A stretch of DNA of 21,721 nucleotides, from IMG/VR virus record IMGVR_UViG_3300045010_000739, positions 1 through 21,721 of that record. One strand, given 5' to 3'. The position numbers were made by a program, and so were the translations under genes. Shown in pieces: positions 677 to 16,694 of the stretch; the first letter of the stretch is position 1, and each line of letters begins with the position of its first letter. The DNA is from a virus. The notes beneath the pieces are model-generated. The model ran no database searches. It had not been told where the DNA came from and saw only the letters and a program-made list of their open reading frames with translations.

Positions 677-2482
677 CTACATAACCTTAAAAGGTATTCG
701 TGTTGTTGTACCGTTCTTCTTCTCTAGATATACAATCTCACCATTACAAAGCTTGGTGCACTCTTTTCTATGTGAAATAATAAAAATACCAAAATTATAT
801 TGATTGACCTGTTCATTTAATATATTCAATACTAGCTCAACACCCGTTTCATCTAAACTAGTATCTAATAACTCATCGTAAAACTGAATATTATAAAATA
901 CGTTTCCTTGCAATCTTAGCATATCTATAAAAGCAAACATAGTGGCCAAATCAATAACCTTTCTCTCTGCCCCACTATAATTAAAATAACTAGTGACCTT
1001 ACCTTTTTCGTTAACTATAGTTTCATCAAATAATTCATTAAAAGTTACTATTGCGTTTGAATTTAGCTTTTTAAGATATACATTTATTTTGTTATTAAAT
1101 AATTTAAGAATCTTTTTTACAATAAAGCTCTTAACACCTTCTTCACTCACAACAAACTTTGATACTTCTATTAAACTTAAAACATTTTGAAGTTTATTTA
1201 CCTTTTCAGATATTTCAAATAATTTTTTAGTATTCTCCTCTATTAATAAGTCTGAATTTTCATCAGTTATCTTAAGGTGATCAAAATCCTGTTGCAATTG
1301 TGTTAGTAGGGTATCTATTTCGATAAGTCTTTTTCTACTACTTTCTAGCTTATGTACATTTAAATTATGTGAATTTATGTTACTATTACCTTTCTTAATT
1401 GCATCCATTATTTTTGTTTTTAAAATATTAAGCTCTGATACCTTGCCCTCATTCAATTTAATCTCATGCTCTGAATTCAGAATTTGTCTTTTAAGTTTTT
1501 CTTTCTCTTCTTTAATGAGGCCTTTATCATGTTCTGTTATTGGTCTTAGGCACACAGGGCAACTTTGCTTATCAGTTCCTATTTTGGAAGAAGATGCTAT
1601 AGCAAATTCATTTTTAGTTTCTAAGGATGCAATGGATTTTGAGTAGTCCTTTAGTTTTGAATCACAATCCTCTAGTTTAGTATTTAATTTAGTTATATTA
1701 GATTCAATTTCTGATACATTAATAGGAATATAGCTATCGATAAATTTGGAAATGAACTCTTTTTCTTTGTGAAGTTCTTTCTGTCTTATATTGAGTTGTA
1801 TTCTACGGTTTTCAAAATCTTTTTTAGTTTTTTCTTTTTGTTTTAAAAAATTATCAAGCATGTTTTTTATTTCTTCTTCTCTAGCTATATTTGCTTCTAA
1901 TTCTTTTTTTGTGGTGTTAAGTTCATCTCTAACCACATTTAACATCTTACTAAACACTTCTAGGTTAAATATACCTTCGATAAATTTTCTCTTTTCAACT
2001 TTCTTCTTAGCCATGAAAGGTACTGTGTTATTTACTGTCATAACAACACAATTCTGAAATACTTCTGAGTTACACTGTATTAGCTCTGATATGTAGCTGG
2101 TAGTATTAGAGATACTGTCACGGGTAATATCTATTTGATTTTGATATAAAATACATTTGCTCGGCTCCAAAGTTCTTATAACCTCATATTCATCCACTTT
2201 CTTACCTACTTTAATGCTAAAAGTAAGTGAAACTTCACACGTTTTAGAAGTAGAATAATTAATAATATGTTCTTTTTTTAACTCTCTAATAGTATCGCCG
2301 AACAAAGCAAAATGCAAAGCGTCTGTTATAGTGCTTTTACCAACACCGTTTCTTCTATCTATTTGATCTCTATTAATACCTGTAATAGCATTAAGACCAG
2401 GAGAAAAAGTTATATCAACAACTTTATCTCCTACGCTAAGAAAATTTCTTATCTTTAATGTATTAAAAATTACACTCTTCAT
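677..2482 (-). CDS. 46: Recombination endonuclease subunit gp46 (SbcC/Rad50-like ATPase)
   Basis: ATPase subunit of the gp46/gp47 (Rad50/Mre11-type) complex that resects DNA ends for phage recombination-dependent replication. The 601 residues show the full plan: split Walker A ending in NGVGKST (45-51), a long coiled coil (about 170-455) with a zinc-hook CPVC at 308-311, the ABC signature YSGAERK (502-508), Walker B with D536-E537, and the switch histidine in ISHRKE (H571). Length and order match T4 gp46 (about 560 residues). Its ATG overlaps the stop of gp47 by 4 bases (ATGA), implying translational coupling. No Shine-Dalgarno is visible. Odd: about seven residues (RDQIDRR) are inserted between the G-x-N and NGxGKS halves of the P-loop compared with T4. 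I believe other phage relatives share this. Confidence 0.95.
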   Translation of the reverse strand: MKSVIFNTLKIRNFLSVGDKVVDITFSPGLNAITGINRDQIDRRNGVGKSTITDALHFALFGDTIRELKKEHIINYSTSKTCEVSLTFSIKVGKKVDEYEVIRTLEPSKCILYQNQIDITRDSISNTTSYISELIQCNSEVFQNCVVMTVNNTVPFMAKKKVEKRKFIEGIFNLEVFSKMLNVVRDELNTTKKELEANIAREEEIKNMLDNFLKQKEKTKKDFENRRIQLNIRQKELHKEKEFISKFIDSYIPINVSEIESNITKLNTKLEDCDSKLKDYSKSIASLETKNEFAIASSSKIGTDKQSCPVCLRPITEHDKGLIKEEKEKLKRQILNSEHEIKLNEGKVSELNILKTKIMDAIKKGNSNINSHNLNVHKLESSRKRLIEIDTLLTQLQQDFDHLKITDENSDLLIEENTKKLFEISEKVNKLQNVLSLIEVSKFVVSEEGVKSFIVKKILKLFNNKINVYLKKLNSNAIVTFNELFDETIVNEKGKVTSYFNYSGAERKVIDLATMFAFIDMLRLQGNVFYNIQFYDELLDTSLDETGVELVLNILNEQVNQYNFGIFIISHRKECTKLCNGEIVYLEKKNGTTTRIPFKVM

Positions 2483-3519
2483 TTACAATTATTATAAACC
2501 GAAACTGTATAGTCTGTTACCTCTTTTTTATTTTGAATATCTAGCATATCAATAAATTCCGATATTGCTTGAGGTATATTCACCCCACTTAAATCTACCT
2601 TTTCCTGACCTAGATCAAATTTATCAAAATTTGCAGAATGATCTACGGTAAAAGTAGACGGTTTAAATGAATTTAGCTTAAGTGACAGTTTATCTAAATC
2701 TGTAGAATCTATATTTCTATCTATTACCAATCTAACAATATTTTTTTCAAATATTTTTTTACCCGTATTTTCAAAATCATTTATTTTTATTAATTCTGAA
2801 AGCTTTATTTTCTTATGCTTAGGAGAAAAATTATTCTCTATAAATTCAAATGACATGGTCTTAAGGTCTAATATATAAAAACCTTTCGTAGATTCTAAAT
2901 CTCCAAAATCTAATTCAAATGGACAACCTACATAAAGAATTGTATTATTACCATATTTTCTTTCCTCTCTTAAATGAAAGTGACCTGACACTATTAATGA
3001 TGAATGCCTAAACAAGTCTTCAGGTTTTGCCCCATGGTCGCAAATCTTATAAGTATTCATCTTGAAGCTTTCTATCTCAAAATGACCAAACACAATATCG
3101 CAGCTTGGTATCTCATTTATTTCTGTACCCCAAGGCGCAAAGAACATTTCTCTTCCACATATTTGCTTTAGTGTAGGTACTTCAATGACTTCTATATTCT
3201 TACGACCATTGAACACACTTATACTATTAATTTTACTATTATGCCTGAAAAACGAATCATGATTTCCTGCAATCATTATTAATCTAAGGCCATCAAATAA
3301 CTGCAAAATTCTACCCGCGAGATGTAATGTGTTGACATTTATTTCGCTTCGATTATGAAAGAAATCACCGCAAAATATAATATCGGTAATATTTCTACTC
3401 TTAAGCTGAGCGGTATACCACTGAACCCACTCTAGAGATATATCATGCCAGGTAGAACTATTAGTATGTACGCCTAGATGAAGATCTGAAAAAATAGCTA
3501 CTTTACAGTCTTTAAGCAT
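2479..3519 (-). CDS. 47: Recombination endonuclease subunit gp47 (SbcD/Mre11-like nuclease)
   Basis: Metallophosphoesterase nuclease partner of gp46. All phosphoesterase motifs are present in order: SDLHLG (11-16, D12 and H14), GDFFHNR (51-57, D52 and H55), GNHD (85-88), GHFEIE, then SGHFH in the second half, so the di-metal centre appears intact. At 346 residues it is about the size of T4 gp47 (339). The C-terminal third (after about 230) would hold the DNA-binding and gp46-contact parts. It overlaps the sigma gene upstream by 8 bases and gp46 downstream by 4 bases, so the three are probably co-transcribed and coupled. Confidence 0.95.
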   Translation of the reverse strand: MLKDCKVAIFSDLHLGVHTNSSTWHDISLEWVQWYTAQLKSRNITDIIFCGDFFHNRSEINVNTLHLAGRILQLFDGLRLIMIAGNHDSFFRHNSKINSISVFNGRKNIEVIEVPTLKQICGREMFFAPWGTEINEIPSCDIVFGHFEIESFKMNTYKICDHGAKPEDLFRHSSLIVSGHFHLREERKYGNNTILYVGCPFELDFGDLESTKGFYILDLKTMSFEFIENNFSPKHKKIKLSELIKINDFENTGKKIFEKNIVRLVIDRNIDSTDLDKLSLKLNSFKPSTFTVDHSANFDKFDLGQEKVDLSGVNIPQAISEFIDMLDIQNKKEVTDYTVSVYNNCK

Positions 3520-4114
3520 TACTTTGATTATAATGGCTATTATCTAAATCTCCACCACCTGAGTCAGAATTAATTCTTATGCCCGTCTCTTCTTCATTTG
3601 CATTTATGAGGTCGTCGTAGTGTCTGTCCCTATAATCTACAATAAGCTGATGATATTTCTTTTCTTTCTTAATACGGCTAATAAAGGCGTGAAAGGCTAT
3701 AGTAGTAAAATAACTAAATGGGCTAAACCCTTTGTCTAGATGAAACTTCTTGTATTTTAATGCTTGATACATCTTTACAACTGCATCGCCGATCATTTCA
3801 TCTTTATAGCTATAATTTATAAAATTAGGCGCAAAAGATAAACCATAGGCAATACGTCGTATGCTATCGGCTAGATACTCTGTCATTTCAGCATCTTTAT
3901 AATATTTTCTAATTGCATCTTCAAATTCTCTACTATTTACATAGTGAGGTTTTTCTGACGCTTTTGTCTTCTTACCAATTTTAGCTACGCTCTTAAGACC
4001 TGTTTTAAGTGTCTGAAGTGCAACTTTCTCAAGTTGTAACTCGGGAGGTAGCTCTATCCCCCCTTTATTTTTCTTGGATTTCGGTGATCTTATATGGGAT
4101 GTTTTCTTGCTCAT
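3512..4114 (-). CDS. 55: Late-transcription sigma factor, gp55-like
   Basis: Divergent sigma-70-family factor that would direct host RNA polymerase to late promoters of the TATAAATA type. The diagnostic match is SYKDEMIGD (about residues 102-110), followed by FSPFSYFTTIAFHAFI and RIKKEKK. These correspond to the T4 gp55 region 2 sequence (YSYKDEMIGD, PFAYFTQI, RIQKEKK) as I recall it. The first 60 residues are a lysine-rich extension, and the tail is a short acidic S/G/N-rich stretch. Length 200 against 185 in T4. The ATG at 4114 lies 50 bases inside the upstream helicase gene, an unusually long overlap. The next in-frame Met is far inside the conserved part, so the start must be near here. 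The TATAAATA-like boxes elsewhere in the window fit this protein's role. Confidence 0.9.
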   Translation of the reverse strand: MSKKTSHIRSPKSKKNKGGIELPPELQLEKVALQTLKTGLKSVAKIGKKTKASEKPHYVNSREFEDAIRKYYKDAEMTEYLADSIRRIAYGLSFAPNFINYSYKDEMIGDAVVKMYQALKYKKFHLDKGFSPFSYFTTIAFHAFISRIKKEKKYHQLIVDYRDRHYDDLINANEEETGIRINSDSGGGDLDNSHYNQSNA

Positions 4115-5525
4115 AAAGTGTTTGTCTTTTTATTTCATGCCGTCTGCCATATGTTAATTGATCGGCAAAATCAAAAATATGTAATTTATTCTTATTTTCG
4201 TGTAGTCTTAATCCTCTACCTATACTTTGAATAACCTTTACTTTTGCTTTTCCACCTGCTACAAAGAAAATGTAATGCAAGTTTTTAACATTAATACCTG
4301 TACTGAAAATCTTACTAATAGCAATCGCAACTACATTAGATTCTGTTTCCATTAAATTTTTAATTTTTTCCCTATCTTCGATTTCAACACTGCCCTGAAT
4401 AAAGAATATTTTTTTACGCGATGCATGTTCAGATAGATATTTATATAATGCTTCACCGTGTTTTATAAAATCTACTAAAATCAACACATTATTAGTTGCA
4501 TTGTTTGCAAGTGTACAGATTATATTATTTCTAAATTTATTTTCAAATAAAAACTCTAGCTCCGTTCTATATCTTTCTGTTGGATTTAATGTTTCCACAT
4601 ATCTGGGTTTGTTTCTAAATGAAAGCTCTAAAATGTTGCACACTACACTTGTAACATATTTTTCTTGTCTTAATTCGAAGCTAGATTTTTCATATATAAT
4701 AGGTCCGATTTTGCCTATTATATTCCATTGATCGAGTTTACTTTCAGGCATAGTACCAGTAAAGCCAAACCTAATAGGGGTATTAATTTTTTTGAGAACC
4801 TTATTGATTTGATTTCCTCTTCTTGCTTTATGGATTTCATCAAACATGAGAATGTTTATACCCTCTAGCCATGATAAATCTGACTTCTCTGAAAGTATAA
4901 TACCTAGATTTGCTATAATAACATTAGCATTTATATCTAGTCTGTTGGAACCGGTCCATTTACTAAAGAAAAAAGGCACCCCATATTGTGTAAAATCTTT
5001 AAATGTCTGTGTTGCTAGTCCTAAATCTGGAACTATAAGTAAGCATTTAAATTGTTTATTGAGTAAAAAGAAATTCGATAACAACGATGCCATAACTAAC
5101 GTCTTGCCGCCTGCCGTAGCTAGGACGGATACTCCTCTGCCTTTTTCAAGACACTGATAAACTATTTCCTTTTGATAATCTCTAAGCTTTAGAGATAAAT
5201 TATCATAGGGTGTATTGGTAAAACTGATATTGTTTTTGTACAATTGTGAAGGTATAACCTGGGCAGCAAATTCTGTAGACGTCTTTATATCAGATTCTTG
5301 ACAATATTCATTCTTTACTAAAAATTTTATTATTTCGTAAAATAAACATGGATCGAATTGACCAGTAGGGGTAATTGCATAAGTTCTTGAGGGAATAAAC
5401 CTTCCTCTCATTCTAGCAAACCTAGCACCCTCATTAGTTACAGAGAAATGTTCTCGTATTTCAGACAAATGTTCAGTCTTAAGTATACCTATACCCTTAG
5501 TTTTATTATATTCAAACAAAACCAT
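4065..5525 (-). CDS. uvsW: UvsW-like superfamily 2 DNA helicase
   Basis: SF2 helicase expected to unwind D-loops, R-loops and stalled forks, as T4 UvsW does in the switch to recombination-dependent replication. Motifs: a Q-like region KLRDYQKEIV just ahead of motif I ATAGGKT (K141), motif II as DEIH (229-232), motif III GFTGTM, and motif VI QSIGRGLR (GRG at 436-438). The N-terminal 100 residues before the helicase core fit the extra UvsW N-terminal domain. 486 residues against about 500 in T4. A GGAG eight bases ahead of the ATG is one of the few good Shine-Dalgarno sequences here. The start overlaps the uvsY stop by one base (TAATG). The 3' end overlaps the gp55 gene by 50 bases. Confidence 0.92.
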   Translation of the reverse strand: MVLFEYNKTKGIGILKTEHLSEIREHFSVTNEGARFARMRGRFIPSRTYAITPTGQFDPCLFYEIIKFLVKNEYCQESDIKTSTEFAAQVIPSQLYKNNISFTNTPYDNLSLKLRDYQKEIVYQCLEKGRGVSVLATAGGKTLVMASLLSNFFLLNKQFKCLLIVPDLGLATQTFKDFTQYGVPFFFSKWTGSNRLDINANVIIANLGIILSEKSDLSWLEGINILMFDEIHKARRGNQINKVLKKINTPIRFGFTGTMPESKLDQWNIIGKIGPIIYEKSSFELRQEKYVTSVVCNILELSFRNKPRYVETLNPTERYRTELEFLFENKFRNNIICTLANNATNNVLILVDFIKHGEALYKYLSEHASRKKIFFIQGSVEIEDREKIKNLMETESNVVAIAISKIFSTGINVKNLHYIFFVAGGKAKVKVIQSIGRGLRLHENKNKLHIFDFADQLTYGRRHEIKRQTLYEQENIPYKITEIQEK

Positions 5526-5920
5526 TATGTGGTCTCCATTTTTATAATATCAACTAAGTTTTTTATATCAAACCCTATACTGTGTATGGTTTTTTCTACT
5601 TTCTCGAGAAACTCTATTATAATTTTCTTTTCATTAATTTGTTTGTTAATCTCTACAACAGCTTCGTGCTTTTCAGCGGTTTTTTCACAAACTATAGTAG
5701 TTAATCTAACTGGTGATTCCTTCCTTATCTCTTCCCCTATTTTACCGATTAATTGATTTTTTTCCTTGTTAAGCTCATTCAGTGCCGCTTTTTCTTTCAT
5801 AAGCCTAGAGACCCACTTAGCTTTTCTTGCAGGTAGCATTAAAGCATTTTCTTTTAAATTAAGTTCGTCTAGTGCAACATCTGAATCTAATTCAGATATA
5901 TATTTCTCTAATATGCTCAC
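5525..5920 (-). CDS. uvsY: UvsY-like recombination mediator
   Basis: Small helical protein that loads the UvsX recombinase on single-stranded DNA coated with gp32. The 131 residues match T4 UvsY (137) in size and at both ends: an N-terminal YISELDSDVALDELNL block, a central LPARKAKWVSRLMKEKAAL corresponding to the MLYSKWLNKHSSIKKEM region, and a C-terminal IHSIGFDIKNLVDI corresponding to IKSRGFAIKHIQDM in T4 (from memory). Its position directly before uvsW supports the call. The start is GTG (5920-5918): the overlapping ATG is followed by a stop. It is the first gene of the five-gene minus-strand block, so its promoter should lie in 5921-5957. UvsX itself is not in the window. Confidence 0.88.
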   Translation of the reverse strand: MSILEKYISELDSDVALDELNLKENALMLPARKAKWVSRLMKEKAALNELNKEKNQLIGKIGEEIRKESPVRLTTIVCEKTAEKHEAVVEINKQINEKKIIIEFLEKVEKTIHSIGFDIKNLVDIIKMETT

Positions 5921-5957: not shown

Positions 5958-6179
5958 ATGAAAAGCTTTAAACAATATATACTAGAATTAAATATTGCGG
6001 GCGCGGGCGGAGTATTCGGAGACGCACCTAGCATGGGTCACGGTGGTGATGTAGGTAATAAGGACTTTTATGCACCTGGAGATTCAAGAATACCTGTAAT
6101 ACTTGGAGCAAAAAAAATTAAAGATAAAAAAAATAAAACTAAATTTCCTATTCAACGTAGAACTCTATCAGGCATGTAG
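5958..6179 (+). CDS. Small conserved-looking phage protein with capsid-targeting-like leader
   Basis: A 73-residue protein of unknown function. The first ten residues, MKSFKQYILE, closely resemble the T4 capsid-targeting leader (M-K-T-Y-Q-E-F-I-A-E type), with a prohead-protease-like I-L-E site at 8-10. After it comes a glycine-rich stretch GAGGVFGDAPSMGHGGD, then NKDFYAPGDSRIP and a basic tail. I recall similar short proteins in T4-like marine phages but no assigned function. It is the first plus-strand gene, diverging from uvsY. By analogy with T4 internal proteins it may be packaged in the head. That is inference from the leader alone. Confidence 0.75.
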   Translation: MKSFKQYILELNIAGAGGVFGDAPSMGHGGDVGNKDFYAPGDSRIPVILGAKKIKDKKNKTKFPIQRRTLSGM

Positions 6180-6190
6180 TTAAATACAAG

Positions 6191-6604
6191 ATGGATTTAG
6201 GCCACTGGATTTTAGTAGATAATATTAAAATGGAAGAGCTACCCTTCGGCTTTATATATGAAATTACAAATACAATAAATAATAAAAAATATATAGGCAA
6301 AAAACAATGTTTTTCAAAATTAAAAAACGCCCCATTAAAAGGAAAAAAAAACAAAAGAATTAGAATAAAGGAATCTGACTGGAAAACTTATACGAGTTCA
6401 TCTAATGAGCTAAATAAAGATATTGCAAAACTTGGAAAAGATAAATTTATATTTAAAATTTTAAGGCTTTGTTGTAGTAAATGGGAATTAGGATATTTTG
6501 AAATAAAGGAACAAATAGAAAAAGAGGCAATACTTAAAGACGACTATTACAATGGTGTATTAAATGTAAGAATTGGTCGTCCTCCTAAATCTTTATTGAA
6601 TTAA
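6191..6604 (+). CDS. GIY-YIG endonuclease-like protein (SegE-type)
   Basis: A 137-residue protein with a variant GIY-YIG core: FGFIYEIT (residues 19-26) stands for GIY and KKYIGKKQ (33-40) for YIG, spaced as in this nuclease family. Downstream, SDWKTYTSSSNELNKDI and the C-terminal FEIKEQIEKEAIL with a conserved-type glutamate, then YYNGVLNVRIG, fit the SegE-like phage branch. Members are free-standing homing endonucleases of T4-like phages. Here it sits between virion-like genes and has no leader tag, in keeping with an inserted selfish gene, although GTTAAATA four bases before its ATG gives it a possible late promoter. Whether it cuts DNA, and where, cannot be read from the sequence. Confidence 0.7.
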   Translation: MDLGHWILVDNIKMEELPFGFIYEITNTINNKKYIGKKQCFSKLKNAPLKGKKNKRIRIKESDWKTYTSSSNELNKDIAKLGKDKFIFKILRLCCSKWELGYFEIKEQIEKEAILKDDYYNGVLNVRIGRPPKSLLN

Positions 6605-7455: not shown

Positions 7456-7826
7456 TGAAATTTTGTAATATATTAAAAGAAAAATATATCGAATTAAACG
7501 AACAAGTTCCTGCAAATCTAACTGCAATGCAAGAACCTGTAGGTCAGCCTTTTGCCCCGACACCTGCTATAGCTGTACCACCACAAGCTAGTATCCCCCC
7601 TGGTCTAGAGCAAGAGACCTCTCCATTAACATCAGAAGGTGAAGTGTTTTTAGTGAGATTATTAAAAAAAGCCTTGTTTATGAATCCTGGTGATATTGAT
7701 GAAAAAGCACTAAAAGATTTACCGGAAATAAATGAAAATAATGCTGCCGAGGTTTTAAGCTCTATCATTAACATTATGAAGAAGTATTCTAATACAATAG
7801 ATGTAGAAATAGAAGCTAATAAATAA
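7455..7826 (+). CDS. Small leader-bearing, proline-rich phage protein
   Basis: 123 residues, function unknown. Leader MKFCNILKE (possible cut after L-K-E, residues 7-9; another L-N-E at 14-16). Then a P/A/Q-rich linker (residues 25-55: VGQPFAPTPAIAVPPQAS and onward) and a helical C-terminal half containing GEVFLVRLLKKAL and EVLSSIINIMKKYS. The linker-plus-helix layout resembles other virion-like proteins at 16767-20239. Its start overlaps the upstream stop by one base. The next gene starts only three bases after its stop. Confidence 0.7.
   Translation: MKFCNILKEKYIELNEQVPANLTAMQEPVGQPFAPTPAIAVPPQASIPPGLEQETSPLTSEGEVFLVRLLKKALFMNPGDIDEKALKDLPEINENNAAEVLSSIINIMKKYSNTIDVEIEANK
7818..7825 (+). 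promoter_or_regulatory. Candidate late promoter box AATAAATA, four bases before the 7830 GTG
   Basis: Seven of eight match to TATAAATA, followed by ATCT and the GTG at 7830. It overlaps the end of the preceding gene. Same spacing as at 7129, 11624, 16755 and 20971. Confidence 0.4.
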
Positions 7827-7829
7827 TCT

Positions 7830-9119
7830 GTGGCATACAAAAGTTTAAAGGATATCTATCTTAGTCAAACCTTTGGTAGAAGAGTACCTGTTCTTCCAAG
7901 ACAGAACATTTTACGCGAACAAATAGATTCGCCAGTTGAAGTTTCTCAAGAACCAGTACAATCAATAAATCTATCTTTAACTGATAAACAGGAATCAAAG
8001 CAGCCTATAGATACTAAATCTTCTGCTACGCCTAGAGCGCCATTCCCATTAAATGAAGTAAAAGAAGCCAGCTGGCCAGTCACTTCTGCTAGTGTACCTT
8101 TCTCTACAAAAGAATTTGTATCTTTGGAAGGTGAAGGTAACGGCGAAAGAAAGGTAGCATCCCTTTTTTATCCTCAAGTTACAGGGGAATCAGATCAAAA
8201 ATATATAGAAAGATTAAAAAACTTTATAGCCGGTCAAAATGATTCTTTTGATGTCATTTCTGATTTTGGAAATTTTGAAGTAAAAGAATTTAAATTAGCT
8301 AAAGGCGGTAAATATAAAGGTAGTGTTAGAATAGGAGCGGAGGGGAAGCACACTACCGGTACAATATTATATCAAGTTAAAGAATTATTAATAACCTTGC
8401 TTCAATTATATTCATCTTTAGATGAAGATTCAAAAAAAGTTATTAATAAAAATTTAATAGCAGATATAAAAACGAACAATAAAATTCCCGAATATTGGAA
8501 TTTAGAGAATTATATAGATGCAATAATGGATGTAGCTGTAGGCGATGATAGAGGTATTTCAGAGTTTCCCAAAACTCTTTTTAATAAAGAAAAAATAAAT
8601 CCTAAAAATTTCACAAAAAACATAAAGAGAGCTACGTATCTTGTTTATACTATTCCACAAATTTTAACGGCATTAAAAGATTTAGCATTAAAAAATAAAG
8701 ATAATAATAATTTAAATAATGAAATAAGTAGAGTTCATAATTTACAAAGCACTCTTAAGGGCATATATCTCAAAAAAGAAGATGATAAATTAAGTAGAGA
8801 AATAGATAAAGAAGCCGAAGCTTTAGATAGAAAGCTTATAAGCAAAGCATGTGTTTCAGATAAGGGTATTAATTGTATAACTGTAAATACTTTTCTACAA
8901 AAATTAGCAATTTTAAACTTACCTGAAGTATTTGCTAACATAGATAGCTTGAGACAAAGCGAGGTTGCTAATTTATTTCCATCAATAGTAACGGGATTTT
9001 TTGCAGTATTTGAAACCAAATTTAAATATATACCTAGGGATAAGTTAGGAAGCTTTTTAGTGATAGATAGCTTTACACAGAAAGGATTAAAGATAGCTTT
9101 AAGAAGTGAAGAAGTTTAA
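7830..9119 (+). CDS. Virion-associated-type protein with a possible PD-(D/E)XK nuclease core
   Basis: 429 residues, GTG start. Not a family I can name. The N-terminal 90 residues look disordered (P/S/Q-rich) after a leader-like MAYKSLKDIYLSQ that lacks the usual glutamate at its end (an L-R-E occurs at 28-30). A conserved-looking core follows: GEGNGERKVASLF (101-113), then SDFGNFEVKEF (144-154) and SVRIGAEG (165-172). A glutamate in an early helix (E106), an aspartate (D145) and an E-x-K (E150, K152) in that order match the PD-(D/E)XK nuclease plan. The rest is helical and lysine-rich. Its last 14 bases overlap the nucleotidyltransferase gene. The nuclease idea is a motif-level hypothesis. 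The coding call itself is firm. Confidence 0.8.
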   Translation: MAYKSLKDIYLSQTFGRRVPVLPRQNILREQIDSPVEVSQEPVQSINLSLTDKQESKQPIDTKSSATPRAPFPLNEVKEASWPVTSASVPFSTKEFVSLEGEGNGERKVASLFYPQVTGESDQKYIERLKNFIAGQNDSFDVISDFGNFEVKEFKLAKGGKYKGSVRIGAEGKHTTGTILYQVKELLITLLQLYSSLDEDSKKVINKNLIADIKTNNKIPEYWNLENYIDAIMDVAVGDDRGISEFPKTLFNKEKINPKNFTKNIKRATYLVYTIPQILTALKDLALKNKDNNNLNNEISRVHNLQSTLKGIYLKKEDDKLSREIDKEAEALDRKLISKACVSDKGINCITVNTFLQKLAILNLPEVFANIDSLRQSEVANLFPSIVTGFFAVFETKFKYIPRDKLGSFLVIDSFTQKGLKIALRSEEV

Positions 9120-9738
9120 ATTATTTTTCGAAAGTAACAATACTCTTGCTCTAGGATTATTTCCCGGAGCATTTAAACCGCCACACAGAGGCCATGTTCA
9201 AACTGTTTTAAATGCATTAAAAAATAATAAAATAGTTTTGGTTTTTATATCAAGTGAAGAGCGGGAGGGTATAACTCCAGAAAAATCTTTACTAGTATGG
9301 AATCAATTTAAGAAATTCCTTGATTTAAAAAATCTTGAAATTACTTTAATCTCTGGTTCACCGGTTACAGCTGTATATCAGTTAGTAGATATATTAAATA
9401 ATGGCAGCTTTTCACCTAAACATAAAACTTTAGCCCCACTACCAGAATCTAAGCTTATTGCAGAAAATTTATTAAAACAATCAGAATTATTTTCTGTTAC
9501 CTTGTATGCTAGTAATGAGGACATGGCAAGATACAATGCATTTTTTAATTCAAACACCTCAAAAATTTATATTGGTAAAAGAGTAAAGAGTATTAATAAA
9601 GGTGAAGTAAAGAGACTGGCCTCTGCAACCGAGGTAAGAAGAAGCATTATTACAGATAATTTTGATAAATTTAAAGCATTAATGCCTAACATAGAGGAAG
9701 ATAAATTAAAGGCTATTTTTTTAGGGCTTCAATCATGA
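9106..9738 (+). CDS. Cytidylyltransferase-like (HIGH-motif) nucleotidyltransferase with leader
   Basis: 210 residues, GTG start 14 bases inside the upstream gene. The nucleotide-binding motif GAFKPPHRGH (21-30) with H27 and H30, and the second motif SATEVRR (173-179), are those of the superfamily of NMN, pantetheine-phosphate and glycerol-3-phosphate nucleotidyltransferases. It joins a nucleotide to a phosphorylated substrate, releasing pyrophosphate. The substrate cannot be told; NMN is one candidate, given the NadR-like P-loop gene at 20269. The start MKKFKLFFES resembles the capsid-targeting leader. Its stop overlaps the next gene's ATG by 4 bases (ATGA), so it is made together with the KxDG protein. 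Such a leader on a small-molecule enzyme is unusual. Confidence 0.82.
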   Translation: MKKFKLFFESNNTLALGLFPGAFKPPHRGHVQTVLNALKNNKIVLVFISSEEREGITPEKSLLVWNQFKKFLDLKNLEITLISGSPVTAVYQLVDILNNGSFSPKHKTLAPLPESKLIAENLLKQSELFSVTLYASNEDMARYNAFFNSNTSKIYIGKRVKSINKGEVKRLASATEVRRSIITDNFDKFKALMPNIEEDKLKAIFLGLQS

Positions 9739-11111
9739 TTACATTTAAGGATTTTACTAATTCTAATATCTTGTTAGAGGATACCTCTCACATTAAAACT
9801 CATTTATCACACTTAGAGGATCTTGCTATAGAAAAGGGAAAACAAGGTTTTGCTGAATTTATTGAACAAGTAACTAGCTTAGTTAATAAAATAAAAGGAT
9901 ATGAAACTAATACCGAAATAAATGCTAAAATAGATGGTAGTCCGATGATATTATTCGGGGTAGATCCAAGAAAGAATTTTTTTAATAAATTTTTTATTTC
10001 ACTAAAAAGCGGATTAAGCGAAAAAAATCCAAAAATTATGCATGATGATAATGAGATAAATGCTTTTTACTCTAATGATGTATTCTTAGCTAATAAATTA
10101 AAAAATCTTTTAGCAAGCTTAAGACCTGCATACGATAATTCTGGCAATACCTATCAAGCTGATGTACTTTATTCTTCAATGCAAGATAAAAAACCAATGA
10201 TTATAAATGGAGAAAATTTTGTAGTTTTTAAGCCTAATACTATAGTTTATGCAGTTCCTATAGATAGTGAATCAGATATTAGTAGAAGGGTACTAGAATC
10301 TTCTGTTGGTGTTATTGTACATGAATCATTCAAGCCAGTTGTAGTCAATTCCACTTTAGTTCCCTCTGATTCCGCTATACCTCAAAATCAAACTATAAAA
10401 TTAACGTCTGCAGGTAGAAATGTTCAATCTATTGTTGAATCTGGTAAAAAAAATAATGTATTTATAGAAAGCAGTAATTATGGTGCGGTAAGCTATAATA
10501 TACCTGAGATTACTTTTGAAAAAATTGCATTCAATTTGTTACAAGCAAAATTCAGAATAGATTTAATTAACTCTAAATTTAATAAGGAATATATAACTAA
10601 CCCTACATTATCTTTATTAAAAATATATTTAAATAAACAAGTGGATAGCTCTCAATCAAGTATATTTACTTCTGCTTTGGAGGGCGGGGATTTAAATTTA
10701 AATCAATTTTTAAATGGGTTTATAGAATTTTTAAATCAGAGATTTAAAAAAGAGAAAATTACTAAAAAAACAGAATCAGGAAAAAGAAATGTACAATCTA
10801 AATTAAGTTTAATTTTAAAATTTATTAAAGAAAACAAAGAAAATTTTAAAAATTTAATAGAAGCAACTTTTTTCATGACAATAATAAAATATATTATTTT
10901 GAATATTTTGTCTAATTTAGATTCTAAAATAGGCAAAACTTTTATGCAGATGCCAGATGGTACTTTAGTTAAAACAAAGGATGAAGGTTATGTTTTGTTT
11001 GTAGGAACAAATCATGTTAAAATAGTAGACAGATTAGATTTTACTAAGATGAACAGGCAAACCGGAGGTAAAAGAAAGTCTACTCAGTCTTTAGTTCAAG
11101 CTGAAAGATAG
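9735..11111 (+). CDS. KxDG-motif protein, DUF6267-like (covalent nucleotidyltransferase/ligase-like)
   Basis: 458 residues. After a leader-like MITFKDFTNSNILLE (L-L-E, 13-15) come HLSHLEDLAIEKGKQGF and INAKIDGSPMILFGVDP with K65-I-D-G68, then FFISLKSGLSEKNPKI. This series matches a T4-like phage family I know as DUF6267. K-x-D-G is the nucleotide-accepting motif I of DNA/RNA ligases and capping enzymes. A motif IV-like EGYV (417-420) and a following lysine in HVKIVDR (K429) near the C terminus are compatible with that fold. The middle (190-400) has no recognised part. Coupled to the upstream nucleotidyltransferase (ATGA overlap). Its end overlaps the opposite-strand gene by 32 bases. Enzymatic activity is inferred. 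Confidence 0.72.
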   Translation: MITFKDFTNSNILLEDTSHIKTHLSHLEDLAIEKGKQGFAEFIEQVTSLVNKIKGYETNTEINAKIDGSPMILFGVDPRKNFFNKFFISLKSGLSEKNPKIMHDDNEINAFYSNDVFLANKLKNLLASLRPAYDNSGNTYQADVLYSSMQDKKPMIINGENFVVFKPNTIVYAVPIDSESDISRRVLESSVGVIVHESFKPVVVNSTLVPSDSAIPQNQTIKLTSAGRNVQSIVESGKKNNVFIESSNYGAVSYNIPEITFEKIAFNLLQAKFRIDLINSKFNKEYITNPTLSLLKIYLNKQVDSSQSSIFTSALEGGDLNLNQFLNGFIEFLNQRFKKEKITKKTESGKRNVQSKLSLILKFIKENKENFKNLIEATFFMTIIKYIILNILSNLDSKIGKTFMQMPDGTLVKTKDEGYVLFVGTNHVKIVDRLDFTKMNRQTGGKRKSTQSLVQAER

Positions 11112-11619
11112 CTTCACGGATAGCCTTTTGAATAGTATCTTTATTTTCCCCGGTTAAAAGGTCGCGAATTTTACTTACTACCTTGTATTCATGATCATCT
11201 TGTTGGCCTTCAAATTTACCTTTACCTTCGAACTCTTTATATTCTAAATAATGAAGAATACTATCTAGATAATCACCGGCTAGTGTTATTTTACTAAATA
11301 CCCAGGGCTCAATATCAGGGGTTCGTTCTACTATATCGTGTAATTTTTTACTGTAGTTATGTATTTTAAATAGTTCTGATTTAGCCATGTTAGTTTCCTC
11401 AGTATCAGGTATACTGCATGCCTCTCCTTCACAGTCCTCGCTACTACCAGCTGTTACAGCTTCACAATCTTCTGACTTTGCTGGTACTTTTTGAACCTTG
11501 ACATTGACTTCTCCCACCGTAGAAGGTACAACATTTTGTTCTATTGCAGGACTTAAGCTTAATTCATTGACTTGGACGTAAGCTTCTTTTAAGTTAATTA
11601 AATCAGCTTTTCTATTCAC
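11080..11619 (-). CDS. Conserved T4-like phage protein of unknown function
   Basis: 179 residues, GTG start at 11619. The N terminus MNRKADLINLKE is leader-like (L-K-E at 10-12, V-N-E at 17-19). Residues 20-75 are acidic and low-complexity with two SEDCE elements. The C-terminal half has a conserved-looking helical block: AKSELFKIHNYSKKLHDI, then WVFSKITLAGDYLDSILHYL. I recall similar blocks (SKI-x-A-x-DYL, HYL) in unnamed proteins of marine T4-like phages. It is a single minus-strand gene set among plus-strand genes, with its own late-type box 4 bases upstream. Its 3' end overlaps the convergent KxDG gene by 32 bases. Confidence 0.78.
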   Translation of the reverse strand: MNRKADLINLKEAYVQVNELSLSPAIEQNVVPSTVGEVNVKVQKVPAKSEDCEAVTAGSSEDCEGEACSIPDTEETNMAKSELFKIHNYSKKLHDIVERTPDIEPWVFSKITLAGDYLDSILHYLEYKEFEGKGKFEGQQDDHEYKVVSKIRDLLTGENKDTIQKAIREAIFQLELKTE

Positions 11620-11623
11620 TTAT

Positions 11624-11631
11624 TATTTATG
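11624..11631 (-). promoter_or_regulatory. Candidate late promoter box CATAAATA, four bases before the 11619 GTG
   Basis: Read on the minus strand: CATAAATA, ATAA, then GTG at 11619. The octamer is seven of eight to TATAAATA. It has the same four-base spacing as the plus-strand boxes, although the gene is on the other strand and stands alone, which argues against chance from a shared upstream gene end. Confidence 0.45.
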
Positions 11632-11635
11632 CTCT

Positions 11636-11643
11636 ATTAAATA
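11636..11643 (+). promoter_or_regulatory. Weak late-type box ATTAAATA, five bases before the 11649 GTG
   Basis: Six of eight match to TATAAATA in the 29-base divergent gap between 11619 (-) and 11649 (+). The same ATTAAATA plus five-base spacing occurs before the ATG at 13097 (13084-13091). Confidence 0.3.
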
Positions 11644-11648
11644 TATAT

Positions 11649-12065
11649 GTGAAGCTTTTTAAAACTTTTGTAAATGAACAGATTCTAGGTCTCACTGAAG
11701 GTATGACTATTCAATACATAGGTTTTGTTAAAGCTAAGGTGGATACAGGAAATAGTGCCTATAATGTACTACATGGTATTGTTAAAAATGAGGAAAATAA
11801 TAAAGTAACTTTTGTAACGGTGAATGATAAACAACTAACTCTACCAGTAATTGAGCATATACCTATTCATATAGGTAGTGGTAATGTAGAAGAGAGAATT
11901 GTTATAGAGTTAGATTGCAGTATTGGTAGCAAACAATTTAACAAAGTTAAGTTTAGTATAGCAGATAGATCTAAAAACGATTGCCCGGTACTTATTGGAG
12001 AGGATTTTATAAAGCTAAACGGTGGTTTTGTTAACGTTAAGATTAATAATAGTGAAAACCGTTAA
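11649..12065 (+). CDS. Retropepsin-like aspartic protease-type protein with leader
   Basis: 138 residues, GTG start (the overlapping ATG is followed by a stop). Residues 27-43 hold FVKAKVDTGNSAYNVLHG with D32-T33-G34, and near the end come IADRSKNDCPVLIGEDF (104-120). These two elements, in this order and spacing, match the retropepsin-like family first called 'ATP-dependent zinc protease' (PF05618; D-T-G-A and P-V-L-I-G-R-D-F in other members). The usual A after DTG is N here. One DTG per chain means it would work as a homodimer. The start MKLFKTFVNE resembles the capsid-targeting leader. It might process virion or host proteins. Activity is inferred. Its end overlaps a convergent gene by 23 bases. 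Confidence 0.68.
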   Translation: MKLFKTFVNEQILGLTEGMTIQYIGFVKAKVDTGNSAYNVLHGIVKNEENNKVTFVTVNDKQLTLPVIEHIPIHIGSGNVEERIVIELDCSIGSKQFNKVKFSIADRSKNDCPVLIGEDFIKLNGGFVNVKINNSENR

Positions 12066-12375
12066 ACCCTATACTCTTTAAAATTAACTGTAAATTAAAT
12101 ATATTTATTATATCTGTAACATAGACTGTTGGAGATAAATTAAATTCCTTATCTATTCTCATTCCAGCTTCTATTCCAAAAGGTAAAAAATCATCTATAA
12201 AATCTGTAACGCCAAAAGTTTTTAAAAATTTATAATAAAAATCTTTACTAGCATTACACTCTATAATTACATTTAGCTTTAAAAACTCATGAGCTACAAA
12301 CGTTACGTCCCTCACACAAGATATACTAGATGGAGGGTTTGTAATATCGCCGTTAATTAGCAGCGACCGACTCAC
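12043..12375 (-). CDS. Small unrecognised phage protein, faintly HAD-like
   Basis: 110 residues, GTG start at 12375, with CTAAATA five bases ahead of it. The first half (SLLINGDITNPPSS, then VTFVAHEFLKLNVIIE) and the segment FYYKFLKTFGVTDFIDDFLPFG resemble the helical cap and linker pattern of HAD-type phosphatases. However, the catalytic D-x-D is missing (N-G-D at 8-10 is the nearest). It may be a degenerate or unrelated fold. It is convergent with the retropepsin-like gene (23-base overlap) and lies 19 bases downstream of folE on the same strand. No leader tag. Confidence 0.6.
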   Translation of the reverse strand: MSRSLLINGDITNPPSSISCVRDVTFVAHEFLKLNVIIECNASKDFYYKFLKTFGVTDFIDDFLPFGIEAGMRIDKEFNLSPTVYVTDIINIFNLQLILKSIGFNGFHYY

Positions 12376-12394
12376 ATAATTATTTAGTTATATA

Positions 12395-13054
12395 TTAAAT
12401 AAGTTTTCTATTTTGTGCAAAATCAACGAATTTATAAAATTCATTACGAGAGTTATCTTTATCATCGAGAAATGCGCCCGACATCCTTGCAGTACGCATT
12501 GTAGAATCATGTCTAATACCACGATTAGAGCAGCAAGTATGAGCAGCCTCTATCATAACAGCGACGCCCTTATTTTTTATGCAAACCTCATCTATATATT
12601 TGTGAATTTGCATGGTTAAATTTTCTTGTACTTGAGGACGGCGTGAAAACCAGTCTACAATACGATTTAGTTTACTTAAACCAATCACCTTACCGTCTTT
12701 AGCAGGAATATATGCAACATGCGCGAATCCCATAAACGGTGCATGATGATGAGAACATAGAGAAGTAACTTTAATATTGGTCTGCGATACTATTCCATCA
12801 TATTTATCAACATTATCAAATGCTGTAATTTTAGGTGGCTCACTGTAACAGCCCCAGGCAAAATCTTCTACAAATGCCTTAGCTACTCTATGTGGAGTAT
12901 TGGCGCTATTCGGATCGTTTCTCCAATCATATCCAAGAGCATCCATATAAGCTTCATAAGCCAAGGCTGCTTTTTCTATAATCTGTTTTCTTTCTTCCTC
13001 AGAATGAGGATTATTATGATTGGCAAAAGCTAATTTTCTTTTAAACATATTCAT
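12395..13054 (-). CDS. folE: GTP cyclohydrolase I
   Basis: Converts GTP to 7,8-dihydroneopterin triphosphate, the first step of both folate and 7-deazaguanine (preQ0/queuosine) synthesis. 219 residues, full length. Motifs: TPHRVAKA (53-60), SLCSHHHAPF with zinc ligands C100 and H103, GLSKLNRIVDWFSRRPQVQE (about 125-144), and AHTCCSNRGI with H162 and the third zinc ligand C164, then RHDSTMRT. All expected catalytic and metal residues appear present. With the QueD-like (13613) and QueE-like (15948) genes it makes three of the four enzymes leading from GTP to preQ0; QueC is not in the window. Such phage sets serve either DNA modification with 7-deazaguanines or host tRNA queuosine. No Shine-Dalgarno or clear late box precedes it, so it may be an early or middle gene. 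Confidence 0.95.
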   Translation of the reverse strand: MNMFKRKLAFANHNNPHSEEERKQIIEKAALAYEAYMDALGYDWRNDPNSANTPHRVAKAFVEDFAWGCYSEPPKITAFDNVDKYDGIVSQTNIKVTSLCSHHHAPFMGFAHVAYIPAKDGKVIGLSKLNRIVDWFSRRPQVQENLTMQIHKYIDEVCIKNKGVAVMIEAAHTCCSNRGIRHDSTMRTARMSGAFLDDKDNSRNEFYKFVDFAQNRKLI

Positions 13055-13612: not shown

Positions 13613-14224
13613 ATGAAATATCAGAGTACTAAAATATTGGATTTAGGTAGCTGTGCATTCAGGCAGTGGAGAGCAGACCATAGTCATTGTCAATATATTC
13701 ATGGTTATAAATTGCAGGCTAAGTTTTGGTTTAATTGCACGGAGCTGGACAATAAGAATTGGGTAGTAGATTTTGGTGGCTTAAAGGGACTTAAAGACAT
13801 AATTGAAGAACAATTTGATCATACTTTTTGTGTATCTCAAGATGATCCTTGTCTTAAAGATTTTAAAGATTTAGCTACAAAAGGTGCATGCAAATTAAGA
13901 ATAATGGATGGGGTTGGTATAGAAAAGACAGCCGAATGGTGCTTTATAAATGCAAATAAATTTATTCGCAGCCATACTAAGGGCAGATGCTGGGTTTCAA
14001 GAGTTGAGGTATGGGAGCATGATAGGAATTCCGCTATAGTTTCAGCTGATTGCGAAAGTGTGCCCGAACATAATCCATACGTGGCCACACAACCTGATAA
14101 TATAATTGAATCATCAACACCTACAGTTTCAGATAACACAGATGATACAACTGCAGCTAGAGTAACCCCCAATGTTACTAGTGGCTGGGGCAATCCTTTG
14201 GGCGGTACTAGCTGGGGTCTATGA
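13613..14224 (+). CDS. queD: 6-carboxytetrahydropterin synthase-like protein (QueD)
   Basis: Expected to turn dihydroneopterin triphosphate into 6-carboxy-tetrahydropterin, the second preQ0 step. The active-site block FRQWRADHSHCQYIHGY (16-32) gives histidines H23/H25, the catalytic-type C26 and H30. WVVDFGGLK (50-58), FDHTF (68-72) and VEVWEH follow as in the family. Odd: the usual H-G-H zinc pair reads H-G-Y (Y32). I recall this in a bacterial and phage subgroup, so it may be a lineage trait and not damage. Residues 160-203 are a T/S/P-rich tail ending GWGNPLGGTSWGL, absent from typical QueD (about 120-145 residues). The stop overlaps the start of a small downstream gene (ATGA). Confidence 0.85.
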   Translation: MKYQSTKILDLGSCAFRQWRADHSHCQYIHGYKLQAKFWFNCTELDNKNWVVDFGGLKGLKDIIEEQFDHTFCVSQDDPCLKDFKDLATKGACKLRIMDGVGIEKTAEWCFINANKFIRSHTKGRCWVSRVEVWEHDRNSAIVSADCESVPEHNPYVATQPDNIIESSTPTVSDNTDDTTAARVTPNVTSGWGNPLGGTSWGL

Positions 14225-15947: not shown

Positions 15948-16694
15948 ATGCCAGATATCAAAACTATTTTTCTAAGCGACGATAAAATATTTTATACATT
16001 GGAAGGTGAGGGCGAATATGTAGGCCGGCCGTCAGTTTTTATGAGGTTATCCATGTGTAATCTAACATGTAGGGGATTTGCCTCTGCTGATTCTCCTAAC
16101 GGTTGTGATAGCTTTATAAGTTGGTCAGTAAAAAATAGAATGACTTTTGATGATGTTTTCAACCTTATGACACAAAATAGTTACAACTGTAATTTAAGAG
16201 ATGGTGCAATATGGAAGATTACAGGTGGCGAGCCTTTGATTCAGCAGAAAGTATTATTAGATCTTGTACGAGATTTTACAAAGCGCTTCGGGTTTGTACC
16301 TCATATTGATTTTGAAACTAATGCTACCATACAACCGCTCGACGAATGGTCGGTATATAAGGTAACATACACAACATCCCCTAAGCTCTCTAATAATGGC
16401 GATCCAGAGGAAAAGAGATATAAGCCGGCAGTACTTAAATGGCATGTTAATGCTGGGTCAGGTTTTAAATTCGTTATTAATAGTGAAAAGGATTTAGAAG
16501 AGATTCTAGCAAAATATATTCATCATCAAGATATCTTAGTACCGCCGGAAAGGGTTTGGTTAATGCCTTGTTGTGGTAGTAGATTAGAGCATATAGAGAA
16601 AGCCGCTATGGTTGCGGAAATGTGTAAGCAGCATAATTTTAAATTTAGCCCTAGACTACAACTTATTATATGGGATAAGGCTTTAAAAGTTTAA
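15948..16694 (+). CDS. queE: 7-carboxy-7-deazaguanine synthase-like radical SAM enzyme (QueE)
   Basis: Third preQ0 step: 6-carboxy-tetrahydropterin to 7-carboxy-7-deazaguanine by a radical SAM mechanism. 248 residues. Family features: TLEGEGEYVGRPSVFMRLS (17-35, the QueE G-E-G opening), CNLTC (37-41), KITGGEPLIQ (91-100), the SAM-side GGEP at 94-97, DFETNAT (122-128) and TTSPKLS (143-149). Odd: the [4Fe-4S] motif is not the usual CX3CX2C. The residue three after C41 is F44, and the next cysteine is C53, giving CX3CX11C. QueE is known for variable cluster motifs, so it may still be active. It pairs with folE and queD; queC is not in the window. Confidence 0.88.
   Translation: MPDIKTIFLSDDKIFYTLEGEGEYVGRPSVFMRLSMCNLTCRGFASADSPNGCDSFISWSVKNRMTFDDVFNLMTQNSYNCNLRDGAIWKITGGEPLIQQKVLLDLVRDFTKRFGFVPHIDFETNATIQPLDEWSVYKVTYTTSPKLSNNGDPEEKRYKPAVLKWHVNAGSGFKFVINSEKDLEEILAKYIHHQDILVPPERVWLMPCCGSRLEHIEKAAMVAEMCKQHNFKFSPRLQLIIWDKALKV

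What the first reader, a model, noticed from the sequence alone, without database searches (positions are those of the whole stretch)
9106..11111. Coupled pair: HIGH-motif nucleotidyltransferase and KxDG ligase-like protein, both with leaders
The two genes overlap by ATGA. The first has GAFKPPHRGH and SATEVRR (nucleotide transfer to a small phosphorylated substrate). The second has K65-I-D-G68 with a C-terminal EGYV and K429, like covalent nucleotidyltransferases. Together they suggest a two-step nucleotide chemistry, perhaps making a nucleotide conjugate and placing it on RNA, DNA or protein. Leaders on both hint at delivery with the phage genome.
Basis: partly seen in the sequence, partly recalled or inferred. 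Interest (0 to 1): 0.7.

Follow-up and report, generated by a model that had tools for sequence, protein, structure and literature searches.

The report
Phage ligase-fold enzyme with packaged nucleotidyltransferase
Hundreds of marine T4-like phages carry side by side (once fused) a protein of unknown function that folds like an RNA ligase and a small nucleotidyltransferase whose relatives have been found inside phage particles, which suggests that a nucleotide-handling tool kit is made and partly injected into the host.

Summary
9106-9738 (210 aa, GTG start) and 9735-11111 (458 aa) overlap by ATGA and carry the stated motifs. The second is Pfam DUF6267 (PF19782, E 4e-51), a family with no assigned function. 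K65, D67, G68, E417, G418, V420 and K429 are invariant in 78 relatives. An AlphaFold model (pLDDT 86) matches the covalent nucleotidyltransferase superfamily: ranks 1-41 in the VIA list are RNA or DNA ligases, best Naegleria RNA ligase, Z 8.7. The partner has the HIGH-superfamily NMNAT/PPAT fold (Z 12.9). The pairing recurs: in IMG/VR contigs, 53 of 61 DUF6267 genes with 1.5 kb or more downstream have such a gene there, and S-PM2 encodes both as one protein. Leaders like the T4 capsid-targeting sequence are enriched on both families. In S-CREM2 all five tight-leader proteins were detected in virions, the nucleotidyltransferase among them; the leaderless DUF6267 proteins of S-CREM2 and S-SZBM1 were not. 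The exact chemistry is inferred only: motif V lacks its second lysine, no sequence-level link to RNA ligases was found, and the window's nucleotidyltransferase is only weakly related to the common partner.

The parts
9106..9738 (+). HIGH-superfamily nucleotidyltransferase (NMNAT/PPAT-like fold), 210 aa, GTG start
   Evidence: Pfam CTP_transf_like E 0.0016 (below the gathering score), TIGR00125 2.7e-5, PHROG cytidyltransferase 4e-6; model pLDDT 74 with PPAT/NMNAT fold Z 12.9
9106..9132 (+). N-terminal leader MKKFKLFFE, like the T4 capsid-targeting sequence (MKTYQEFIAE)
9166..9195 (+). GAFKPPHRGH (HxGH nucleotide-binding motif)
9622..9642 (+). SATEVRR (SxTxxR-type motif; S173 and R178 invariant in the family alignment)
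9735..11111 (+). DUF6267 (PF19782, T4-like GC71) protein, 458 aa: covalent nucleotidyltransferase / RNA-ligase fold
   Evidence: (E 4.2e-51)
9735..9779 (+). N-terminal leader MITFKDFTNSNILLE, a non-canonical leader; the conserved domain starts after it
9927..9938 (+). ligase motif I K65-I-D-G68 (KWDGAP in most relatives)
   Evidence: K65, D67, G68 and P70 invariant
10155..10163 (+). motif III-like Q141-A-D143 (QGD in most relatives)
   Evidence: Q141 and D143 invariant
10506..10913 (+). helical insertion (residues 258-393) between the ligase core strands; much reduced in the short 295-315 aa relatives
10983..10994 (+). ligase motif IV E417-G-Y-V420
   Evidence: E417, G418 and V420 invariant
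11019..11033 (+). ligase motif V-like K429-I-V-D-R433; the second lysine of the canonical KxK is absent (V431)
   Evidence: K429 and R433 invariant

Best explanation
The two genes encode a functionally coupled pair of nucleotide-transfer enzymes of T4-like phages. DUF6267 is a new family of the covalent nucleotidyltransferase (RNA/DNA ligase, capping enzyme) superfamily: K65 would attack ATP (or NAD+) to form an enzyme-AMP intermediate and pass the AMP to an acceptor, most likely a 5'-phosphate end of RNA, which is then sealed or left adenylylated. The neighbour is a HIGH-superfamily adenylyltransferase acting on a small phosphorylated substrate, NMN-like being the best guess. At least the nucleotidyltransferase is sent into the capsid by an N-terminal capsid-targeting leader and would enter the host with the DNA; DUF6267 carries the same kind of leader in many relatives from phages other than cyanophages and none in most cyanophages. 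Shown here: reading frames, motifs and their invariance, predicted folds, recurrent pairing and fusion, leader enrichment. Taken from papers: virion detection of relatives. Inferred: catalysis, substrates, RNA as target, and that the two act in one pathway.
For: Fold of DUF6267: model pLDDT 86, pTM 0.84. VIA ranks 1-41 are all ligases of one superfamily (Naegleria RNA ligase Z 8.7 over 187 residues, REL1 7.8, T4 Rnl2 7.7, T4 Rnl1 7.1, DNA ligases about 6); the first unrelated row is at Z 5.2. In BFVD the first named hits outside the family are an iridovirus polynucleotide kinase/ligase and an RNA ligase 2, both weak. Motifs I, III, IV and V are invariant in 78 sequences. Nucleotidyltransferase fold. 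Pairing: 53 of 61 IMG/VR loci with 1.5 kb or more downstream, and DUF6267 followed by cytidyltransferase in many annotated phages. Fusion: S-PM2, one 591 aa ORF with DUF6267 (1.6e-111) plus CTP_transf_like (1.3e-6); BFVD lists a further DUF6267-fold protein named cytidyltransferase-like, 599 aa. Leaders: DUF6267 35/95 and nucleotidyltransferase 30/73 against 45/666 other plus-strand ORFs. Virions: S-SZBM1_140 and S-CREM2 gp154, both with leaders, detected (PMC9146016; PMC10665884).
Against: Plain Foldseek against the PDB gives nothing at E 0.001 or better (best ligase row E 0.2), and the VIA Z values lie near the level the tool warns about. No sequence-level link: hmmsearch against the PDB finds no ligase and hhalign against T4 Rnl2 relatives gives probability 1.2%. 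Motif V has KxV instead of KxK and motif III has D instead of E. The window's nucleotidyltransferase is only weakly related to the usual partner (16.8 bits leave-one-out), lies upstream instead of downstream, and may be a replacement rather than an orthologue. The nucleotidyltransferase also occurs in phages in which the DUF6267 search found no match (532 against 465 records), and in S-CREM2 the two genes are far apart. DUF6267 itself was not detected in either virion proteome read.
Confidence: 0.55

Rival explanations
1. Two independent enzymes that merely sit in the same block of internal-head or host-takeover genes: an NMNAT-like enzyme that keeps up NAD+ after infection, and an RNA-repair ligase. 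No shared pathway.
For: The nucleotidyltransferase occurs without DUF6267 in other phages; in S-CREM2 it lies next to gp55 while DUF6267 is elsewhere; the papers read the packaged enzyme as NMNAT acting on NAD+ (PMC9602691, PMC10665884).
Against: Recurrent adjacency in both gene orders, overlapping genes and a fusion protein.
Confidence: 0.25
2. DUF6267 keeps the ligase fold but is no ligase: it stops at self-adenylylation, or it transfers AMP to a protein or to another small molecule.
For: Second motif V lysine missing and motif III Glu replaced by Asp; no DNA/RNA-binding domain of known ligases recognised; unique conserved residues H23, H26, E28 and H196.
Against: The motif I and IV residues and the first motif V lysine are invariant, which argues for a working nucleotidyl transfer step.
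Confidence: 0.25
3. DUF6267 is NAD+-dependent: it uses NAD+ as AMP donor and the HIGH enzyme recycles the released NMN to NAD+.
For: Would explain the pairing and the fusion directly; the partner fold is closest by Foldseek to archaeal NMNAT.
Against: No NMN-binding domain Ia of NAD+ ligases is recognisable; the closest folds are ATP-dependent ligases; NMN specificity of the partner is untested and VIA scores PPAT equally.
Confidence: 0.1
4. The leaders are ordinary N-termini and the virion detections are carry-over of abundant proteins.
For: The authors of PMC10665884 and PMC9602691 name carry-over as possible; few peptides (2 in S-SZBM1, 3 in S-CREM2).
Against: In S-CREM2 all five tight leader proteins are in the virion list and none of the 167 undetected proteins has one (the tight form was chosen after looking, the looser form gives 5/28 against 4/167, P 0.004). 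Leaderless DUF6267 of the same phages is absent from the lists.
Confidence: 0.15

Closest known systems
ATP-dependent RNA ligases: Naegleria gruberi RNA ligase (Rnl5), T4 Rnl2, T. brucei REL1
   Same: Predicted nucleotidyltransferase core, motif I KxDG, motif IV EG(Y/F)V and first lysine of motif V in the expected order
   Different: No detectable sequence similarity; KxV in motif V; Asp in motif III; helical insertion between the core strands; unique conserved N-terminal HxxHxE; own Pfam family DUF6267
HIGH-superfamily NMNAT (archaeal NadM) and PPAT (CoaD)
   Same: Fold (Z about 12.9), HxGH and SxTxxR-type motifs
   Different: Scores fall below every NMNAT or PPAT equivalog cut-off; substrate unknown; capsid-type leader; paired or fused with DUF6267
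T4 internal proteins IPII and IPIII with capsid-targeting sequence
   Same: N-terminal leader of the form M-K-x-(F/Y)-x-x-F-(I/L)-x-E ahead of an unrelated cargo
   Different: Cargo is an enzyme; cleavage by a gp21-like protease not shown for this phage
Cyanophage virion-associated cytidylyltransferase / NMNAT-like proteins (S-SZBM1, S-CREM2, S-SCSM1, S-CBWM1)
   Same: The first two are the same gene family as the usual DUF6267 partner
   Different: The link to DUF6267 and to the leader was not found in the passages read; the window's enzyme is a divergent member or a replacement; the other two sequences were not examined here

Membership tests
Pfam DUF6267 (PF19782) | profile score above the gathering cut-off | tested here: met
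   174.9 bits against cut-off 27
ATP-dependent RNA ligase | nucleotidyltransferase-domain fold | tested here: met
   predicted model only; VIA ranks 1-41 all of this superfamily; plain Foldseek weak
ATP-dependent RNA ligase | motif I Kx(D/H)G nucleophile | tested here: met
   K65, D67 and G68 invariant in 78 sequences
ATP-dependent RNA ligase | motif III acidic residue (GE) | tested here: inconclusive
   Q-(G/A)-D143 with Q141 and D143 invariant, Asp instead of Glu
ATP-dependent RNA ligase | motif IV EGxx | tested here: met
   E417 and G418 invariant
ATP-dependent RNA ligase | motif V KxK, both lysines | tested here: not met
   K429 invariant, the second position is V431; R433 invariant
ATP-dependent RNA ligase | profile-level sequence similarity to a known RNA ligase family | tested here: not met
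   hhalign against T4 Rnl2 relatives probability 1.2%; no ligase in hmmsearch of PDB sequences
ATP-dependent RNA ligase | covalent AMP adduct and strand sealing | not testable with these tools
   needs purified protein
HIGH-superfamily nucleotidyltransferase | (H/T)xGH and SxTxxR-type motifs with NMNAT/PPAT fold | tested here: met
NMN adenylyltransferase | equivalog-level match | tested here: not met
   best nicotinate/nicotinamide-nucleotide adenylyltransferase equivalog 22.8 bits against cut-off 240; activity not testable
T4-type capsid-targeting sequence | N-terminal M..(F/Y)..F..E leader | tested here: met
   nucleotidyltransferase of the window: MKKFKLFFE; DUF6267 of the window is a longer variant
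T4-type capsid-targeting sequence | presence and cleavage in the virion | not testable with these tools
   relatives detected in S-SZBM1 and S-CREM2 virions; nothing for this phage

The most novel reading that the evidence does not exclude
T4-like marine phages package a ligase-fold nucleotidyltransferase and its partner adenylyltransferase and use them right after entry to mark or repair host or phage RNA ends: an injected RNA-end modification system, accompanied by a hypervariable nuclease-like gene just upstream.
Probability: 0.2. Interest if true: 0.9.

Novelty: new variant of a known kind. Interest (0 to 1): 0.62.

Why it matters
DUF6267 relatives are found in 465 phage records of the collection searched, nearly all cyanomyoviruses, yet no paper in the library searched names the family. 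A fold and catalytic lysine for it, a recurring partner enzyme, and a leader that predicts which proteins are packaged turn an anonymous, very common cyanophage gene into something a single adenylylation assay and a virion mass-spectrometry run can test. The leader also gives a simple way to list likely injected proteins in marine T4-like phages.

Tried and rejected
Sequence search of DUF6267 against solved structures, single and profile: no ligase found. hhalign of DUF6267 against 14 T4 Rnl2 relatives: no similarity. PADLOC: no defence-system match for either enzyme or for the upstream genes. Literature: no held paper names DUF6267 or spells cytitidyltransferase; a search for NMNAT with RNA ligase and virion gave one paper, which was not followed up. 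Search for close relatives of the window's nucleotidyltransferase in IMG/VR: only contigs of the same virus; best phage matches are Prevotella Lak phages and a Flavobacterium phage with no DUF6267 hit in the 12 kb fetched around them. Hits in bacterial or archaeal genome records were taken as phage contigs because nearly all are marine MAGs with the same phage gene order, not as cellular genes. A scan with wrong coordinates failed and was repeated.
Full report
What is there. The window is a 21.7 kb fragment of a T4-like myophage: gp46/gp47-type SbcCD subunits, the late sigma factor gp55, a DNA helicase and a UvsY-like protein lie at 677-5920 on the minus strand. Two IMG/VR contigs carry the same pair at 99-100% identity.

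The second protein. It is a member of Pfam DUF6267 (E 4e-51), known in cyanophage annotation as T4-like GC71 and without assigned function. tblastn with the window protein finds 113 phage records; with the S-SZBM1 homologue 465 records, nearly all cyanomyoviruses, plus phages of Pelagibacter, Methylophilales, Stenotrophomonas and others. Hits in cellular genome records are 37 contigs, mostly of marine metagenome bins, with the same phage gene order, so the gene looks phage-borne. In 78 aligned relatives K65, D67, G68, P70, Q141, D143, H196, E417, G418, V420, K429 and R433 are invariant.

Fold. AlphaFold with 78 sequences gives pLDDT 86 and pTM 0.84. Plain Foldseek against the PDB is weak, the best ligase row being a Naegleria RNA ligase at E 0.2. 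Re-alignment of the same candidates by VIA puts ligases of the covalent nucleotidyltransferase superfamily in ranks 1-41: Naegleria RNA ligase Z 8.7 (187 residues, 3.9 A), T. brucei editing ligase 7.8, T4 Rnl2 7.7, fungal Trl1 7.2, T4 Rnl1 7.1, archaeal RNA ligases and DNA ligases; capping enzymes follow at about 4.8, while the first unrelated row is at 5.2. The Z values alone are middling; the uniform identity of the list and the invariant motif I, IV and V residues in the expected order make the assignment convincing to me. In the library of predicted viral structures the top rows include two DUF6267-fold proteins named cytidyltransferase-like, and the first named hits outside the family, both weak, are a polynucleotide kinase/ligase and an RNA ligase 2. 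What does not fit a textbook ligase: motif V is K-x-V instead of K-x-K (R433 is invariant nearby), motif III has Asp for Glu, an alpha-helical block (258-393) is inserted in the core and is much reduced in the short relatives of 295-315 aa, and there is a conserved HxxHxE near the N terminus. No sequence-level relation could be shown.

The first protein. Family scans place it in the adenylyl/cytidylyltransferase (HIGH) superfamily at low scores. The model (pLDDT 74) has the NMNAT/PPAT fold: Z 12.9, with NMNAT and PPAT tied, and archaeal NMNAT first by Foldseek. It is not an NMNAT by NCBI cut-offs. It is only weakly similar to the usual DUF6267 partner (16.8 bits with a profile that excludes it) and its closest phage matches are in Lak phages and a Flavobacterium phage, so it may be a replacement from the same superfamily.

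Pairing. In annotated phages the common order is polymerase - uvsX - gp41 - often mazG - variable gene - DUF6267 - cytidyltransferase. In 80 IMG/VR loci, which were not used to build the search profiles, 53 of 61 DUF6267 genes with at least 1.5 kb of downstream sequence have a nucleotidyltransferase gene there, at a median distance of 422 bp. In this window the order is reversed. In Synechococcus phage S-PM2 both domains form one 591 aa protein. Exceptions exist: in S-CREM2 the genes are far apart, several loci lack the partner, and the nucleotidyltransferase is found in 532 phage records, more than DUF6267. The phages are related to each other, so the counts are not independent events.

Leaders and delivery. 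T4 IPII and IPIII start MKTYQEFIAEA; their propeptides are capsid-targeting sequences removed by gp21 (review PMC9026906). A leader of this form is found on 35 of 95 DUF6267 and 30 of 73 nucleotidyltransferase proteins, against 45 of 666 other plus-strand ORFs of the same loci. The DUF6267 leader is detachable: C48C1 has MMLDFKNFITE|QKNTHMTHIED, cyanophages start MAKNTHLEHLED, so cleavage after the leader Glu would give nearly the same N terminus. Published virion proteomes agree with the leader rule. In S-SZBM1 the cytidylyltransferase S-SZBM1_140 (leader MRFRQFIIEA) was detected and its leaderless DUF6267 neighbour S-SZBM1_141 is not in the table (PMC9146016). In S-CREM2 the five proteins with a tight leader (SAM hydrolase, APH-like kinase, cytidylyltransferase gp154 and two hypotheticals) are all in the virion list, none of 167 undetected proteins has one, and leaderless DUF6267 (gp87) is not listed (PMC10665884). 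The tight form was defined after seeing the data; the looser form gives 5/28 against 4/167, P 0.004. The authors warn that carry-over in CsCl is possible. NMNAT-like proteins were also reported in virions of S-SCSM1 and S-CBWM1 (PMC9602691); I did not check that these belong to the same family. In the window the nucleotidyltransferase leader is a good match; the DUF6267 one is longer.

Reading. I take DUF6267 as a new family of covalent nucleotidyltransferases, most likely acting on nucleic-acid ends and coupled to a HIGH adenylyltransferase, with the latter and, outside most cyanophages, probably the former packaged in the virion. Adenylylation, substrates and the shared pathway are inference. 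An NAD+-linked cycle between the two enzymes is attractive but has no direct support here.

Noticed in passing
window 7830-9119 and the gene upstream of DUF6267 in L001, L002, L021, L023, L041, L052, L087, L099 and others: The gene just upstream of DUF6267 (in this window, of the pair) is hypervariable (many unrelated clusters) yet many versions carry a PD-(D/E)XK-like pattern such as TPKTDFTIGNNKISLK, SSDIVIKKGTQFYGVSLKKK or GLDVIVGSTGYEVKA; the window version has DVISDFGNFEVKE. No Pfam or PADLOC match to a nuclease.
   Followed up: partly
window 5958-6179 and 11649-12065: Two more genes of the window start with a capsid-targeting-like leader: MKSFKQYILELN (73 aa) and MKLFKTFVNEQ (138 aa, PF05618 putative zinc protease, E 5e-8).
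   Followed up: partly
window 12395-13054, 13613-14224, 15948-16694: GTP cyclohydrolase I, QueD-like and QueE-like genes, as in 7-deazaguanine synthesis.
   Followed up: no
window 6191-6604: PHROG 447 labels this ORF NAD synthetase, but four other PHROGs call it homing endonuclease and the sequence (FIYEITNTINNKKYIGKKQ) looks like GIY-YIG; the label is probably wrong.
   Followed up: no
L105 (S-CREM2) 3837-5081, 7704-10313, 10579-12846: In S-CREM2 a SAM hydrolase and an APH-like kinase with capsid-type leaders, and a Cas9-like protein with a similar stretch a little inside its annotated start (LRFASFMAEAA), are all in the published virion list.
   Followed up: partly
L141 5137-7860: Flavobacterium phage immuto encodes a 907 aa protein with a HIGH nucleotidyltransferase domain in the middle, a Pol-beta-like GS...DxD stretch at the N terminus and a metallopeptidase-like stretch near the C terminus.
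   Followed up: no
L001 7736-8398: Pelagibacter phage HTVC008M has a zeta-toxin-like kinase gene (PF06414, E 3e-13) between DUF6267 and the nucleotidyltransferase.
   Followed up: no
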